Source: Clostridiales bacterium
Lineage (GTDB): Bacteria > Bacillota > Clostridia > Saccharofermentanales > Saccharofermentanaceae
Assembly (NCBI GenBank): GCA_017545245.1
Contig: JAFWPB010000016.1
Span: 186,001-250,000 of the forward strand
Direction: 5' to 3'
DNA: 64,000 nucleotides
Position numbers and translations under genes: made by a program. Shown here one piece after another: positions 11,155 through 17,592 of the stretch. The notes under the pieces were generated by a model. It did no database searches, was not told the DNA's origin, and saw only the letters and a program-made list of their open reading frames with translations. Each line of letters begins with the position of its first letter. Position 1 is the first letter of the stretch.

Positions 11155-13230
11155 TTAGAGGGTCCCTTTCTCAATTCCATAGGACAGACAGATCTCCGTA
11201 AACTCTTTCGAATCAACAAAGCCACGGAGGACATTTTCACGAGCTTCGCCCTGATCGAGCTGTCCTACCCAGTATTTCAGGCCATCTGCTTCCGGTTCAC
11301 GATTCATGAACGTTCTGTAGAGTCGTGTGACGTATTCTTTGTTGTCCGTCTTGAAGTTCACAAACTCATCGGACTCGAAGAAGAACTTCGCACATCCGGC
11401 ACCATCCTTTTCCAGGTTGGTAAGGGCCAGGCTCCAGTACTCCAGGCCTTCCGCTTCTGCTTCTCTACCGAGGCACTTGGTATACATTCTCTCTGCAAAT
11501 CCTTTTGCCGAAACAGACGGGATCTCTGCTTTGGCTGTAGGTGCACCGGACTTAATTCCATACTTCGCACAAAGATTGCACCATTCCTTGGAGTCAACAA
11601 AAGACTTCACCACATCGGCACGTTCATGGCCTTCCTTCAAGAACTTCTGCCAGAAAGCAAAACCTTCCTTCTCAGGTTCACGGTCAAAGAACGTCTTATA
11701 AACTGTCTTCAGGAATTCGTCATCAGTAGTCTTCTTCTGGAGGAACTCCGGGCTAGTCAAAAAATATAACGCACATCCGCCACCTGTGTAGGCGTCGGTC
11801 TTCACCTGTTCAACCCAGAATTCTTTTCCTTCTGCATCCGATTCACGGTTAAAAGCAACACTGTAGAGCCTTTCCATGAAATCGCCGAATTCATATGTCG
11901 GCTCCGCCGCTTCTTCCCACACTGCAAAAAGAACTGTGTCTTCTTTGAGTTTTGTTTTGAAACTGAACGCCTTGCGCTCTTCTTTATCATTCGTGTCCAA
12001 CGTCCAGTACTTGAACTCAAAACCTTCCTTCTTAGGATCCTCCGGTTTCACTACCGTTCCATTGAGCTTGACCATCTGTGCATCCACATCCGAACCACCC
12101 TCGGTTTCGAAATTCACGATCCACATATCTTCCTTAGCCCACTGTGCGTAGAACGACACATTCTCAGCGAAGAGATTTCCCGGAAGTTCGTGGTCCGCTC
12201 TGTAAAGATGTCCCAGATTCTCCTTGCCTGTAGACCATGCCACAAACTGATATTCTTCTTTTTCGAACGGGCACTTCAACAGTATCATGGGATCCAGAGC
12301 ATTATGAATGCAGGACACAAGGCCCTCATCCTGCTCATTTATTCCGCCGTTACCGGCATAAACGATCTCGATCTCCCTGACTGTAACAGTCCAGTCTTCG
12401 ATGATATATGTTTTTCTTCCTTCGTTATTCTCAATGGCAAACTTCTCCGGGTAGACCTCTACCAGAAACTTGGCCTGCGGATTCTCTGTATCATCTTTCT
12501 TGGCAAACCAGACATCCCAGGTCAGAGCAGACTTATCTTCCAGATGACTCTCGATCTCACTCAAATCCGCGCGGAACGGAACATGGGCATCGTAACGGCC
12601 TGCATCTCCCGGGTTTTCACGAGGATTCTCATCGGTATACTTGGAAAACGCTTCCCAGGTCTTACCTCCATCAAGGCTGATCACGTAAGCATCCCTCTCA
12701 ATGTCTGCCGGAGATACAAACGATATCCACAATGAATATTCATCCTGCTCGATCACGGTAATGTGGTCGAATTTGATACCGTTGTCAGTTAATACGCCTT
12801 CGAACATCGGGAAGACATTCGGATCGATCTCCCAGCCATTGTTCAGAAGTTCCCATGTTGCTTTGATCATGATGTTCTTCGTGACCGGAGTCTTCAGATC
12901 ATAAGGCTCGTCATACAAGGTCCAGCCTTTAAACTTGTGGCAGCTTCCCCAATCCGGATCCGGCACTTCCGTCACACTCGGATCCTGCTGTTTGGCAATG
13001 GCCAGAGCCGCATCATAAGCACTCTGTCCTTCCTCAACCGGAAGAATGATCGGTTCATCTCCATTCTGAAGATCGATGGTCACCGTGTACTTGGCCGCCT
13101 CCGCATCCTCATCGGCAAGTGCTTTTCCCGTATTACCAAAGATCAAAAACGCACTCAACAGCATGGCCGCTATGACGATCCACGCCCACTTTCTTGATTG
13201 AGTCTGATGTAAAACACTACTAACTGTCAT
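11155..13230 (-). CDS. Secreted InlB-repeat/DUF4214 protein
   Basis: Exported protein of 691 aa, paralogous at its C-terminus to the neighbouring 701-aa protein. A signal/anchor helix (about 14-32) is followed by beta-rich sequence with three Flg_new/InlB-like repeats (for example CHKFKGWTLYDEPYD, FVAWSTGKENLGH, FKYWTLDTNDKEER) and four DUF4214 half-repeats (about 458-690). AAGGAGGGATG precedes the ATG at 13230. No LPXTG or other known wall anchor is visible, so attachment may depend on the DUF4214 module or the protein may be released (inference). An independent promoter is not obvious in the 64-bp gap to the upstream gene. Confidence 0.85.
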   Translation of the reverse strand: MTVSSVLHQTQSRKWAWIVIAAMLLSAFLIFGNTGKALADEDAEAAKYTVTIDLQNGDEPIILPVEEGQSAYDAALAIAKQQDPSVTEVPDPDWGSCHKFKGWTLYDEPYDLKTPVTKNIMIKATWELLNNGWEIDPNVFPMFEGVLTDNGIKFDHITVIEQDEYSLWISFVSPADIERDAYVISLDGGKTWEAFSKYTDENPRENPGDAGRYDAHVPFRADLSEIESHLEDKSALTWDVWFAKKDDTENPQAKFLVEVYPEKFAIENNEGRKTYIIEDWTVTVREIEIVYAGNGGINEQDEGLVSCIHNALDPMILLKCPFEKEEYQFVAWSTGKENLGHLYRADHELPGNLFAENVSFYAQWAKEDMWIVNFETEGGSDVDAQMVKLNGTVVKPEDPKKEGFEFKYWTLDTNDKEERKAFSFKTKLKEDTVLFAVWEEAAEPTYEFGDFMERLYSVAFNRESDAEGKEFWVEQVKTDAYTGGGCALYFLTSPEFLQKKTTDDEFLKTVYKTFFDREPEKEGFAFWQKFLKEGHERADVVKSFVDSKEWCNLCAKYGIKSGAPTAKAEIPSVSAKGFAERMYTKCLGREAEAEGLEYWSLALTNLEKDGAGCAKFFFESDEFVNFKTDNKEYVTRLYRTFMNREPEADGLKYWVGQLDQGEARENVLRGFVDSKEFTEICLSYGIEKGTL

Positions 13231-13294: not shown

Positions 13295-15088
13295 TCAACT
13301 GATCGGTTCAAAGTCGGCGGCACCGTGTTTGCAGAGCGGACATACGATATCGTCCGGAAGCTCGTCGCCTTCGTAAACATATCCGCATACCTTGCAGACA
13401 AATCCCTTCTTGCCTTCCGTCTCCGGCTTCGGCTTCACGTTCTTCTGGTAGTACGTATACGTCATCGTCTCCTTGTCGCTGAGCACGCGTGCCTCGGTGA
13501 CGGAGCAGATAAACATACCATGTGTATCGAGGTCCACATAATCTTCCACCTTCAAAGACATGAAAGAATTGATGTAACGGCTCAGGAAAATAAGTCCGTT
13601 ATCGGAACGCAGGTTCTCGTCGGAACCGGCAAACTTATCCACATTGCGGCCACTCTGGAATCCATATGTTTCAAAAACCTTGAAAGGCGCTTCCACAGAG
13701 AGGCAGTTCACATTCATCACACCCGTCTGCTTGATGACGTGATGCGAATAGTTCTGCTTGTTGATCGTTACCGCGATGCGGTTCGGGGTATTGGTGACCT
13801 GCGTCACAGTATTCACGATTAGGCCGTTATCCTTCTTGCCGTCATTTGATGTGACGACATAGAGGCCATAACCGATATTGAAAAGCGCTGTCAAATCATT
13901 CTTGTTTGCCGTGTCTTCCTTCTGTGCAAGATAATCCTGGCAAAGCTCCTGCGCCATGGCTTCCAGCTGTGCTTTGGAGTCATCGTTCAAGGCCGACATG
14001 ATCTTGACATTGTTCTCGGTATACGTAATATTCTTGGACTTCTCCAGCATCGCCTTCATCGTACGGATCGCCTGCGGTGCCCAGGAACCATTCTCGATCA
14101 TACCGATCGTCTTGTTCTGGAACTGGCGTTCTGTCAGGTGATGAATGAATTCACGCATGAACGGGAACACATCCGCGTTATATGTCGTCGTCGCAAGGAC
14201 AATTCTGCCATAGCGGAACGCATCCTCGACACACTCTGCCATATCCTCACGGGCAAGATCATTTACAACCACCTTCGGGCAGCCATTGCTCTTCAACTTC
14301 TCCGCAAGAAGCTCCACTGCTTTTTTCGTATTACCGTAAACAGACGTATAGAAGATCGCGATGCCATCGCTCTCCACGCCGTAACTGGACCATGTATCAT
14401 AGAGCTTGAGATAAGGAGAAAGATCTCCTGTCAAAACCGGACCATGGAGCGGGCAGATCGTCTTGATCTCCAGAGCCGCCGCTTTTTTCAGGACAGCCTG
14501 TACCTGCGCACCATATTTTCCGACGATACCAATATAGTAACGTCTTGCTTCACACGCCCAATCTTCTTCCACATCCAGTGCGCCGAACTTTCCAAACCCG
14601 TCCGCCGAGAAAAGCACTTTATCATAAGCATCGTACGTCATCAGTACTTCCGGCCAGTGTACCATCGGCGCGGCTACAAAGTGCAGGACATGCTTTCCAA
14701 GAGGAAGAGTATCGCCTTCACCTACAACGATCCTGCGGTCTTCAAACTCCGTGCCAAAGAAGTTCTTCATCATGGTAAATGCTTTCGCGGAAGAGACGAT
14801 CGTTGCCTCCGGATAATTCTTCATAAAGTTCACGATGTTGGCGGAATGATCCGGCTCCATGTGCTGTACGACCAGATAGTCCGGAGTCTTCCCGTCAAGT
14901 GCTTTTTCCAGGTTATCAAGCCACTCATGGGTGAAATTCCGGTCCACTGTATCCATGACCGCAACCTTATAATCTGCAACCACGTACGAATTGTATGCCA
15001 TGCCGTTCGGGACCACATACTGTCCTTCAAAAAGATCGATCTGATGATCGTTTACGCCAACATACTTGATATCATTACTAATAAACAT
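13295..15088 (-). CDS. Flavodiiron protein fused to flavin reductase and rubredoxin
   Basis: Oxygen (or NO) reductase of anaerobes, 597 aa. A metallo-beta-lactamase-like diiron domain (about 1-240; ligand motif HMEPDH and later CPLHGP) is followed by a flavodoxin domain (about 245-385, FYTSVYGNTKKA), a flavin-reductase-like FMN domain (about 415-540) and a C-terminal rubredoxin ([10 protein letters not shown]...CPLCKHG). Carrying both electron-delivery modules on one chain makes it largely self-contained. The start at 15088 is set by GTGAGG eight bases upstream and by homologous N-termini; the frame extends to 15130, overlapping the upstream stop. It would reduce O2 to water as part of the oxidative-stress set here. 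Confidence 0.92.
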   Translation of the reverse strand: MFISNDIKYVGVNDHQIDLFEGQYVVPNGMAYNSYVVADYKVAVMDTVDRNFTHEWLDNLEKALDGKTPDYLVVQHMEPDHSANIVNFMKNYPEATIVSSAKAFTMMKNFFGTEFEDRRIVVGEGDTLPLGKHVLHFVAAPMVHWPEVLMTYDAYDKVLFSADGFGKFGALDVEEDWACEARRYYIGIVGKYGAQVQAVLKKAAALEIKTICPLHGPVLTGDLSPYLKLYDTWSSYGVESDGIAIFYTSVYGNTKKAVELLAEKLKSNGCPKVVVNDLAREDMAECVEDAFRYGRIVLATTTYNADVFPFMREFIHHLTERQFQNKTIGMIENGSWAPQAIRTMKAMLEKSKNITYTENNVKIMSALNDDSKAQLEAMAQELCQDYLAQKEDTANKNDLTALFNIGYGLYVVTSNDGKKDNGLIVNTVTQVTNTPNRIAVTINKQNYSHHVIKQTGVMNVNCLSVEAPFKVFETYGFQSGRNVDKFAGSDENLRSDNGLIFLSRYINSFMSLKVEDYVDLDTHGMFICSVTEARVLSDKETMTYTYYQKNVKPKPETEGKKGFVCKVCGYVYEGDELPDDIVCPLCKHGAADFEPIS

Positions 15089-15126
15089 ATTCATTTCCTC
15101 ACATGTAATTTTTTTCGCCAGATCGG

Positions 15127-16512
15127 TCATTCTTTCTGGCCGTTGTCTTTCTTTCTAGTCTTCACAATGATGATCACTACCACTACTGCCACCACGACAA
15201 TGATCGCAATCCAGATGAAGATGCAAAGACCAAGAGGCTGCGGGCAGAATCCGCAGAGTGAACACTTCTTTTCCTCTTTCTTTTCTTTTTCTGCTCTTCC
15301 GAATGCAGGGTGCTCGGTCGGAGTCGGTGTATCATCCGGCACTTCCGTCGGTGTCGGATCTTTCTTATCTTCGATCTTCGTCGTCTTGAACGTCAGCACA
15401 TCGGAATATTCGGAGCTGAAGGCATCGATACCCTCAACGTTCTGCTCACAATAGTATCTGCAACGGATCTCCAGTTCGGAACCATCCGGGATCACTTTTC
15501 CATCATTGAGCCATGTGGTCAGTTCCCACAAATGTTCGCCCGGCTTGATGTCACGCTCGCCATTAAGCGGGATCCATTCATCGTCCCCCTTCAGTCTGGC
15601 CTCCGTTTCAATAAAAACATATCCACCGTTACCATGCACATTTGTAACTTTTGTAATAAACTCATCAGTAACAGCAAGCTTATATCCGGCATACGGCATA
15701 TCGCTGTCAGAAGACGGTTCGATCAGACGAAGCTCGGAAATCTCCGGCTTAGGAAGATCTTTCTCAGAAATCGGCTCGTATGCTTTCACATCTTTACCGT
15801 AACCGCAAATTTCAGACCAGTCGGAATAGAAGAACTTATAGCCATCATCTATAGTAGAAGTATAAGTTTTAGCGATCAGTCTCGCGCGGAAATAAGCCGT
15901 ATGCTTGGTAAAATCGATGTGTAAGGATTCTGTTTCCTCGTCATAAGTGTACTGGTCGGGATTCAACTGATCTTTCACTCCCGGAGTCTTTGTTTCCGGA
16001 TTTCCGTACCAGCGTTCATTATTCGGCAAACCTCGCATGAGCCAGGCTTCATGGACTGTATCCGTCGAGTTACTCAAAGGTAATTCCACCACATCCCATT
16101 CACTGACCCGGCAAAACCCTGTCTCAGGATCATAACCAAAACTGCAATCCACATGGCCATCCCAGTATTCCGGCTTATAGTGCCAGCCGCTGACAGGATC
16201 ATTGACATCATCGATTGCCCAGTCGACCTGCAGACATACATTCAGTTCTTCAAAATCATACGGTGCGAAAAATTCATCGCCCTTATCGTCGGCCCTTGCT
16301 TCCTCCATCTTCGAAATGAAGTCCATTATACCGTCATCCACACTTGCCGCGAACTGCATCGTCGTCGGGGAGTCATTTCCCTCGAGCCAGTTGACCGAAA
16401 CCTTCGGTGCTTTCAAATCAAACGGAAGCTTCGAATTATCCGCTAAAACTGAGAATGCCAGAGTCGGCAGCAGCATCGCTCCTGCCAATAGCGTCGCTAA
16501 AAGCTTCTTCAT
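15127..16512 (-). CDS. Membrane-anchored surface protein with Cys-rich juxtamembrane motif
   Basis: Not a family I can name with confidence. The 461-aa product has a signal peptide (MKKLLATLLAGAMLLPTLAF), an extracellular region of about 370 residues rich in Trp, Asp and Tyr, a Thr-Pro linker (DPTPTEVPDDTPTPTEHP), a cluster CSLCGFCPQPLGLC directly before one strong transmembrane helix (about 430-450), and a basic tail KTRKKDNGQ. GGGAGGTATTT precedes the ATG at 16512. Its upstream region carries the seven-unit palindrome array. The five-cysteine motif abutting the membrane may be an anchoring or assembly signal (inference). Confidence 0.8.
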   Translation of the reverse strand: MKKLLATLLAGAMLLPTLAFSVLADNSKLPFDLKAPKVSVNWLEGNDSPTTMQFAASVDDGIMDFISKMEEARADDKGDEFFAPYDFEELNVCLQVDWAIDDVNDPVSGWHYKPEYWDGHVDCSFGYDPETGFCRVSEWDVVELPLSNSTDTVHEAWLMRGLPNNERWYGNPETKTPGVKDQLNPDQYTYDEETESLHIDFTKHTAYFRARLIAKTYTSTIDDGYKFFYSDWSEICGYGKDVKAYEPISEKDLPKPEISELRLIEPSSDSDMPYAGYKLAVTDEFITKVTNVHGNGGYVFIETEARLKGDDEWIPLNGERDIKPGEHLWELTTWLNDGKVIPDGSELEIRCRYYCEQNVEGIDAFSSEYSDVLTFKTTKIEDKKDPTPTEVPDDTPTPTEHPAFGRAEKEKKEEKKCSLCGFCPQPLGLCIFIWIAIIVVVAVVVVIIIVKTRKKDNGQKE

Positions 16513-16618
16513 AAATACCTCCCAAATCCAGTGTTCATCGGACCTTCGTCCATCGAACGGCCTCAACCCCAAAGAAACAAGAATCCTTCGCTGTGCGAAA
16601 AGAACTCAATACAATTTT

Positions 16619-16624
16619 ATTATA
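16619..16624 (-). promoter_or_regulatory. Predicted -10 box of the surface-protein gene
   Basis: TATAAT on the minus strand, about 107 bp upstream of the start codon. At a 17-bp spacing the -35 position reads AAGACC, a poor match, and the first unit of the palindrome array begins just beyond it at 16649. A weak -35 next to an array of sites fits an activator-dependent promoter. Confidence 0.5.
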
Positions 16625-16648
16625 GCATACACACCACCGTCGGTCTTC

Positions 16649-16922
16649 TTTTTTCCAACCCTAGGTGCGAAGCTTTATCCCCCTCCCGGATTTTTCCAAC
16701 CCTAGGTCGGATTTCTGAAGAAGCGGCTTTATTTTTCCAACCCTAGGTTGGAAAAACTGAAAAGCACCAGGAAATATCCAACCTAAGGTTGGAAAAAAAT
16801 GAAAGTACGAATGTGCCCCTCCAACCTAGGGTTGGAAAAAACTTGAAGCATACCGAAGCAGCGAACCTTAGGTTGGAAAAATCCAAAGGCACAAAAATGC
16901 ATCCTGCTTAGGGTTGGAAAAA
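16649..16922. repeat. Seven-unit palindrome array, 41-bp period
   Basis: Seven copies of a dyad based on TTTTTCCAACC-TAGG-TTGGAAAAA, with centres near 16663, 16704, 16745, 16785, 16828, 16869 and 16909. Spacing is 40-43 bp, about four helical turns. Units 1-2 keep only the left half (TTTTTCCAACC), units 3-5 both halves, and units 6-7 mainly the right half (GGTTGGAAAAA), so the array has overall dyad symmetry about unit 4. The intervening sequences are unique. No gene overlaps it. It fills most of the 432-bp gap between the surface-protein start and the rubrerythrin stop. The spacers and degenerate palindromes do not fit CRISPR. Confidence 0.85.
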
Positions 16923-16937: not shown

Positions 16938-16978
16938 AGAGGCTGTCTCTCGCAACACCAGCCACGTGAGACAGCCTC
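16938..16978 (-). terminator. Intrinsic terminator of rubrerythrin
   Basis: Perfect 11-bp stem GAGGCTGTCTC / GAGACAGCCTC with a 19-nt loop, 26 bp after the rubrerythrin stop on the minus strand and followed by TCCTTTTAG. Confidence 0.75.
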
Positions 16979-17004
16979 TGTTTCTTTAGTGCCGTTATAA
17001 AGGA

Positions 17005-17592
17005 TCAGCCGAAGTATCTGTCAAGCAGGCCCTTCAGTGCTTTTCCATGGCGAGCCTCGTCACGTGCCATCTCGTGTACTGTATCGTGGATCGCATCCAG
17101 GTTGTTCTTCTTCGCTAAGGTAGCCAGCTCTGTCTTACCAGCTGTAGCACCGAATTCGCAGTCAACGCGCCAAGCAAGATTTGCCTTTGTGGATGCCTTC
17201 ATGTTCGGCTCGAGGTCCTCACCGAGAAGCTCTGCGAACTTTGCAGCGTGCTCGGCTTCTTCGTAAGCCGCTTTCTCCCAGTAGAGACCGATCTCCGGAT
17301 AACCTTCACGGTAAGCAATACGAGCCATGCAGAGGTACATGCCAACTTCACTGCACTCACCTGTAAAATTCGCCTTGAGCTGTTCGAAGATGTACTTTTT
17401 ATCTTCCTCAGAGATGTCCGGATTATTCTTTACAGTCTGAGCATATACACCATACTTGTGCTCTGCTGCCAGGTTAGCATTCTCTTCCATGATCTTGAAC
17501 ATTTCCTTCTTTGCCTTACAAACCGGGCACTGATCCGGAGCCTCGTCACCCTCATAAACGTAACCACATACTGAACAAACATACTTAGCCAT
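17005..17592 (-). CDS. Reverse rubrerythrin (NADH peroxidase type)
   Basis: Peroxide-scavenging diiron protein, 195 aa. An N-terminal rubredoxin-like Fe(SCys)4 site ([10 protein letters not shown]...CPVC, residues about 6-24) precedes a four-helix ferritin-like domain with the Glu/His ligands seen in [18 protein letters not shown] and MARDEARHG. This domain order is that of the reverse rubrerythrins of clostridia, which reduce H2O2 with NADH through an oxidoreductase. AAGGAG is eight bases before ATG 17592; a TTG two codons upstream is too close to it. It lies just downstream of the PerR-like gene and probably belongs to its regulon. Confidence 0.93.

What the first reader, a model, noticed from the sequence alone, without database searches (positions are those of the whole stretch)
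16649..16922. Seven-unit, helically phased palindrome array with overall dyad symmetry
Seven copies of TTTTTCCAACC/GGTTGGAAAAA around CTAGG or TTAGG recur every 40-43 bp, close to four turns of B-DNA. Left-most units keep only the left half, right-most only the right half, and central units both, so the whole 270 bp is symmetric about its middle. CCTAGG is a rare hexamer in bacteria, and three units contain it exactly. The array abuts a promoter with a good -10 but no -35 in front of a surface-protein gene. This could be a cooperative activator platform, an A-tract-bent architectural site, or a nested cruciform. I know of no described element of this form.
Basis: partly seen in the sequence, partly recalled or inferred. 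Interest (0 to 1): 0.82.

Follow-up and report, generated by a model that had tools for sequence, protein, structure and literature searches.

The report
Nuclease-linked arrays of phased DNA palindromes
The odd 270-base row of seven mirror-image DNA motifs is one copy of a repeat that certain gut bacteria keep between their genes, spaced at four turns of the double helix, and it occurs together with one particular DNA-cutting enzyme gene, which points to an undescribed repeat-and-nuclease system in bacteria.

Summary
The array is real: seven units at 41,41,41,43,41,41 bp, against 0.16 palindrome matches expected by chance. It belongs to a dispersed, intergenic family found in 5 of 188 genomes of the order: G000 (this genome), G008 (a two-unit copy), G061, G081 and G113.

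Four of these five carry one extra gene that no other genome of the order has in this form: an Exo_endo_phos (EEP, TDP2/LINE-1-endonuclease-like) nuclease with an N-terminal domain predicted to resemble the tandem ribbon-helix-helix protein TraY. In each, an array sits 110-145 bp upstream of the gene. The only other homologue (G110, about 30% identical) has its own array family of different sequence, upstream of its gene and dispersed through its genome, spaced 42 bp in 51 of 52 intervals. Repeat sequence and nuclease change together.

Distances fit a 10.5-bp helical repeat. Spacers are not complementary beyond the motif. Whole-array copies end at the array edges. Arrays also lie between convergent genes, and three same-genus relatives have the same gene order without an array, so this is not a dedicated activator platform. 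Best reading: a REP/RAYT-like system built on a different enzyme. The association is strong; the mechanism is inferred.

The parts
16649..16922 (.). whole array, seven phased units, overall dyad
16650..16674 (.). unit 1, left half only (TTTTTCCAACCCTAGGT...)
16691..16715 (.). unit 2, left half only
16732..16756 (.). unit 3, complete palindrome TTTTTCCAACCCTAGGTTGGAAAAA
16773..16797 (.). unit 4, both halves (core CCAACCTAAGGTTGG)
16816..16840 (.). unit 5, both halves
16857..16881 (.). unit 6, right half only
16898..16922 (.). unit 7, right half only
16938..16979 (-). intrinsic terminator of the rubrerythrin gene, its T-run pointing into the array
   Evidence: inverted repeat I16; terminator scan, 14 bp from the array edge; sequence shows it directly
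16619..16627 (-). extended -10 (TGCTATAAT) of the surface-protein gene promoter
   Evidence: sequence; a -10-like TGATATACT/TGCTATACT is kept in relatives without an array
15127..16512 (-). surface-protein gene downstream of the array (signal peptide, C-terminal membrane anchor; no Pfam match)
17005..17592 (-). rubrerythrin gene on the other side of the array

Best explanation
The array is one member of a genome-dispersed repeat family that forms a system with a single-copy nuclease gene (G000 contig 21, 17102-18127, outside this window). SHOWN: arrays and nuclease occur together, the nuclease gene has its own array upstream, array sequence and nuclease diverge together, and units keep a 42-bp (four-turn) register. 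INFERRED: the N-terminal domain (predicted as two ribbon-helix-helix units in one chain, like TraY) binds the palindromic units; units 42 bp apart put the proteins on one face of the DNA so that they can associate along the array; and the EEP domain, which keeps its catalytic residues, nicks or trims DNA at or near the array so that the array is copied into other intergenic sites or maintained there. The lifestyle would be that of REP/BIME repeats and their RAYT enzyme, carried out by an unrelated enzyme.
For: Arrays occur in 5 of 188 genomes of the order (other genomes show at most a few scattered matches). The nuclease (E<=0.001 with one protein, E<=0.01 with the profile) occurs in exactly G000, G061, G081, G113 and the divergent G110, and in none of the other genomes sampled across the class apart from one partial weak hit. 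An array lies about 110-145 bp upstream of the gene in all five. The G110 arrays (AGTAACC-5nt-GGTTACT) are dispersed in G110 and found in no other genome beyond single hits. Spacing: family 1 mostly 41-43 and 82-84, best helical period 10.49; G110 42 bp in 51 of 52, 10.50. Nuclease: PF03372 above its gathering score, N104, E138, D260, N262, S329-D330-H331 invariant, EEP fold Z 20-23 to TDP2 and ExoIII homologues, N-terminal domain Z 8.3 to F-plasmid relaxosome chains that I take to be TraY (PMC12117103); purifying selection, w=0.10. Dispersal: L061 and L065, different loci of one genome, share 309 bp at 74% with homology ending at the array edges; L192/L197 90% over 186 bp; L195/L201 89% over 304 bp. 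The window locus lacks an array in G006, G010 and G015.
Against: No binding or cleavage has been shown. G008 has a two-unit array but no nuclease (probably brought in by the ~1.65-kb exchange seen, or left after loss). G000 shows only two arrays, so proliferation there is slight. No target-site duplication was established. The RHH match is modest (Z 8.3; Foldseek E 0.47). Relatedness of G061, G081 and G113 reduces the number of independent co-occurrences to about three lineages. G081 and G061 are incomplete MAGs.
Confidence: 0.55

Rival explanations
1. Same nuclease-array pair, but with a host role rather than spread: arrays act as anchoring, titration or chromosome-organising sites (centromere-like or nucleoid-associated), and the EEP domain processes DNA or nucleotides there or is held in check by the arrays.
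For: Orthologous arrays stay at the same loci between G061 and G113, several with few indels; strict phasing suggests a multi-protein complex on one face; nuclease under purifying selection.
Against: Whole-array copies at unrelated loci with homology ending at the array edges; the system is absent from nearly all close relatives, so it is not an essential housekeeping function.
Confidence: 0.25
2. Transcription-factor platform: the arrays are cooperative operators that regulate the adjacent promoters.
For: An array lies upstream of the surface-gene promoter and of the nuclease gene itself; in L057/L069 three half-sites run into a -10. Autoregulation of the nuclease gene is plausible.
Against: Arrays also lie between convergent genes (L064) with terminators on both sides; flanking genes share no evident theme; same-genus species have the same gene order and a -10 without an array.
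Confidence: 0.12
3. A structured RNA or DNA cruciform element: left and right halves pair into a long rod.
For: The window array folds at -122.5 kcal/mol, z -9.
Against: That energy can come from the repeated motif: spacers at mirrored positions are complementary in 0.440 of positions against 0.458 in chimaeras of unrelated arrays. No Rfam match in the window. Phase is kept at 10.5 bp, a duplex property.
Confidence: 0.03
4. Ordinary MITE-like or passive tandem repeats; the link with the nuclease is hitch-hiking of one array next to one gene.
For: Patchy distribution and multi-copy state.
Against: A homologue of about 30% identity has a different repeat sequence with the same period in the same upstream position; coincidence would have to occur at least twice.
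Confidence: 0.05

Closest known systems
REP/BIME/REPIN repeats with RAYT (TnpA-REP) (PMC2817692, PMC3116915)
   Same: Intergenic palindromic repeats in mirrored arrangements, cognate nuclease gene beside its own repeats, repeat and gene co-evolve, repeat number follows gene presence, species-specific
   Different: Enzyme is an RHH-EEP metal-dependent nuclease, not an HUH tyrosine transposase; no GTAG-type foot; units are phased at four helical turns; halves degenerate outward from a dyad; copy number is lower
TraY and the F relaxosome (PMC12117103)
   Same: RHH fold doubled in one chain (predicted here); several copies bind side by side on one DNA stretch next to a nicking enzyme
   Different: Here fused to an EEP nuclease and chromosomal; no conjugation genes seen at the loci read
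sopC/parS-type centromere arrays (my own knowledge, not looked up)
   Same: About 43-bp repeats, each with a short inverted repeat
   Different: No ParA/ParB recognised at the loci read; many dispersed arrays; mirrored half-sites
EEP endonucleases: LINE-1 endonuclease, TDP2, APE1/ExoIII
   Same: Catalytic domain fold and residues
   Different: No reverse transcriptase in the protein; N-terminal DNA-binding domain; no NCBIfam equivalog cut-off reached

Membership tests
REP/RAYT (BIME, REPIN) system | Cognate enzyme is a Y1 HUH tyrosine transposase | tested here: not met
   Cognate gene is Exo_endo_phos with no transposase match. Whether a separate RAYT exists elsewhere in G000 was not searched.
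REP/RAYT (BIME, REPIN) system | GTAG/CGTC-type tetranucleotide beside the palindrome | tested here: not met
   Consensus of 197 units: WWWTCCAACCYNRGGTTGGAWWW
REP/RAYT (BIME, REPIN) system | Repeats extragenic, dispersed, number follows presence of the cognate gene, repeat and gene co-evolve | tested here: met
EEP (Exo_endo_phos) superfamily nuclease | Profile match above the gathering score and conserved catalytic residues | tested here: met
   PF03372 32.5 and 29.4 bits against 24.5; invariant residues; Z 20-23. Activity itself is not shown.
TraY-like tandem RHH DNA-binding protein | Two strand-helix-helix units in one chain, binding DNA | tested here: inconclusive
   Secondary structure E2-7 H17-29 / E51-56 H58-75 H81-93; Z 8.3, 86 residues, rmsd 2.9, but Foldseek E 0.47; no binding data
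CRISPR array | Near-identical direct repeats, unique spacers, Cas genes | tested here: not met
   Units vary, orientation flips across the dyad, spacers are shared between loci; genes beside the window array are not cas genes
MITE / insertion sequence | Terminal inverted repeats with target-site duplications | tested here: inconclusive
   Whole-array copies with sharp edges and an array-free site in relatives, but no duplication established
Transcription-factor operator platform | Sits at promoters and changes their output | not testable with these tools
   Position argues against a dedicated role

The most novel reading that the evidence does not exclude
A previously undescribed class of bacterial repeat system: a tandem-RHH/EEP nuclease that recognises, and by nicking spreads, its own helically phased palindromic arrays between genes, a counterpart of REP/RAYT built on a LINE-1/TDP2-type endonuclease fold.
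Probability: 0.5. Interest if true: 0.9.

Novelty: categorically new. Interest (0 to 1): 0.82.

Why it matters
REP/RAYT is the best-known case of a bacterial nuclease that lives with a population of genome-wide palindromes. A second, unrelated enzyme with the same lifestyle would show that such systems arise repeatedly, would give bacteria a counterpart to the endonucleases of LINE elements, and would offer a clean model for phase-dependent assembly on DNA, because two repeat families of different sequence keep the same four-turn register.

Tried and rejected
A scan of 84,980 named genomes with TTTTCCAACC-N30..33-TTTTCCAACC gave 62 stretches; outside ruminant-gut Clostridia MAGs the ones I read were simple unrelated repeats or coding matches. 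The long-hairpin (RNA or cruciform) idea was tested and dropped. No homologue of the nuclease in plasmids, phages or viral contigs and no PADLOC match, so a plasmid or phage origin or a known defence system has no support. A search for array-free sites at the cation-efflux locus (read) was uninformative because gene order is not kept. No Rfam match in the window. Literature searches for the combination found nothing. 26 of 40 arrays have an inward terminator within 75 bp, but I had no background rate for intergenic regions without arrays, so I claim no target preference.

Full report
OBSERVATION. The array is present at the stated coordinates. Seven dyads lie at 41, 41, 41, 43, 41 and 41 bp. 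The palindrome pattern gives 12 window matches, all in the array, against 0.16 expected. All four CCTAGG of the window are in it. Left units keep the left half, right units the right half, and the middle three keep both.

FAMILY. A pattern search of the whole genome finds a second array on contig 21 and a lone match on contig 25. Across all 188 genomes held for the order, only five have more than scattered matches: G000, G008 (two units), G061, G081 and G113; named records that match these contigs by length are ruminant-gut Clostridia MAGs. I read some 30 arrays in these genomes. The consensus of 197 units is WWWTCCAACCYNRGGTTGGAWWW.

PHASING AND SYMMETRY. Adjacent spacings cluster at 41-43 and 82-84, with further values near 53, 63-65 and 105, that is, near whole turns of the helix. 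Over 457 pairwise distances the best helical period is 10.49 bp, and the resultant at the unit period is 0.70 against a null of 0.10 +/- 0.02. Because most distances are multiples of about 42, the helical fit leans on those; the off-multiple distances are fewer and include exceptions (27, 28, 35, 37, 50, 75, 108). Left-only units lie left of right-only units in 110 of 125 pairs, reached by 0 of 2000 permutations. Orthologous arrays are not independent, so these figures overstate the number of events.

THE COGNATE GENE. The contig-21 array lies upstream of a gene for a 342-residue protein. The same gene lies beside an array in G061, G081 and G113. A search of the 188 genomes finds it in those four and, at about 30% identity, in G110, and nowhere else; a sample of 391 genomes of the class adds one partial weak hit. 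Residues 95-340 are an EEP nuclease (PF03372; Z 20-23 to TDP2 and ExoIII homologues) with the catalytic residues invariant in all five. Residues 1-97 are predicted as two strand-helix-helix units, and the best structural neighbours are chains of the F relaxosome (Z 8.3). I take these chains to be TraY, because their residue numbers exceed the length of IHF (my own knowledge) and entry 9F10 is titled as lacking TraM; the paper describes F TraY as an RHH dimer fold in one polypeptide. The match is modest.

INDEPENDENT REPLICATION IN G110. The G110 gene also has an array just upstream, but of different sequence: half-sites AGTAACC and GGTTACT around five bases. That array family is dispersed on several contigs of G110, is absent from the other 187 genomes beyond four single matches, and keeps 42 bp in 51 of 52 intervals. 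Some of these arrays are recent copies of one another, so 51 is not a count of independent events. The mirrored polarity is visible in several (for example <<<>>) but is less regular than in family 1. Two nuclease lineages thus have two repeat sequences and one period.

CONTEXT AND DYNAMICS. Arrays lie between tandem, divergent and convergent genes; 26 of 40 have an inward-pointing terminator within 75 bp (no background rate). At the window locus three same-genus species keep rubrerythrin, terminator, -10 and surface gene without an array. Two loci of G061 share a 309-bp array copy at 74% whose homology ends at the array edges, and G110 has copies at 89-90%. Orthologous arrays of G061 and G113 are at the same loci and align almost without gaps in several cases, with exceptions (a 6-bp gap in L067/L139; whole units gained or lost in L062/L100 and L068/L077). 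Between G000 and G008 a segment of about 1.65 kb from 15000 to the first array unit is about 98% identical while both flanks are about 80%, so a recent exchange ended in or at the array.

MECHANISM. The case for a nuclease-array pair is strong; how it works is inferred. I favour binding of phased units by the RHH domain and array copying or maintenance by EEP nicking (0.55), over a host structural role for the same pair (0.25), a promoter platform (0.12), passive repeats (0.05) and a folded RNA or cruciform (0.03). The RNA fold is very stable (z -9), but spacers are no more complementary within arrays than between arrays (0.440 against 0.458).

KNOWN SYSTEMS. The lifestyle matches REP/BIME repeats and RAYT: cognate gene flanked by its repeats, co-evolution, repeat number following gene presence (PMC2817692; PMC3116915). 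Membership fails on the enzyme and on the tetranucleotide foot. I found no description of an EEP nuclease with cognate phased arrays, within a library that lacks most subscription papers.

Noticed in passing
window 15000-16666 and L035 5600-7273: Surface gene with promoter and first array unit is about 98% identical between G000 and G008 while both flanks are about 80%: a recent exchange of about 1.65 kb ending in or at the array.
   Followed up: partly
L171 895-1174: The nuclease-adjacent array of G110 has a second palindrome, TATTTCACGNAACGTGAAAT, in its spacers; among the other G110 arrays read it appears once, as TTTCACGAAACGTGAAA at the end of L196. Possibly an extra operator.
   Followed up: no
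L057 3488-3585; L069 1977-2080: Three half-sites GGTTGGAAAAAT about 29-31 bp apart run into the -10 (TGCTATAAT) of a membrane-transporter-like gene in G081, with a similar promoter-side arrangement in G113.
   Followed up: no
G110:C6:48090-48485 (L195): A 126-bp module (three 42-bp units) is repeated in tandem with few differences, and occurs at about 90% identity at contig ends elsewhere: recent expansion.
   Followed up: partly
L061 2725-2857, L073, L065, L075: A 65-bp step module with a shared conserved spacer occurs at two unrelated loci in both G061 and G113.
   Followed up: partly
L116, L126 (Verrucomicrobia MAG CAJXYV): TTTTCCAACC repeats with a 21-bp period, an unrelated repeat in another phylum.
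   Followed up: no
window 11155-13230: Large protein with four DUF4214 stretches and a List_Bact_rpt domain.
   Followed up: no
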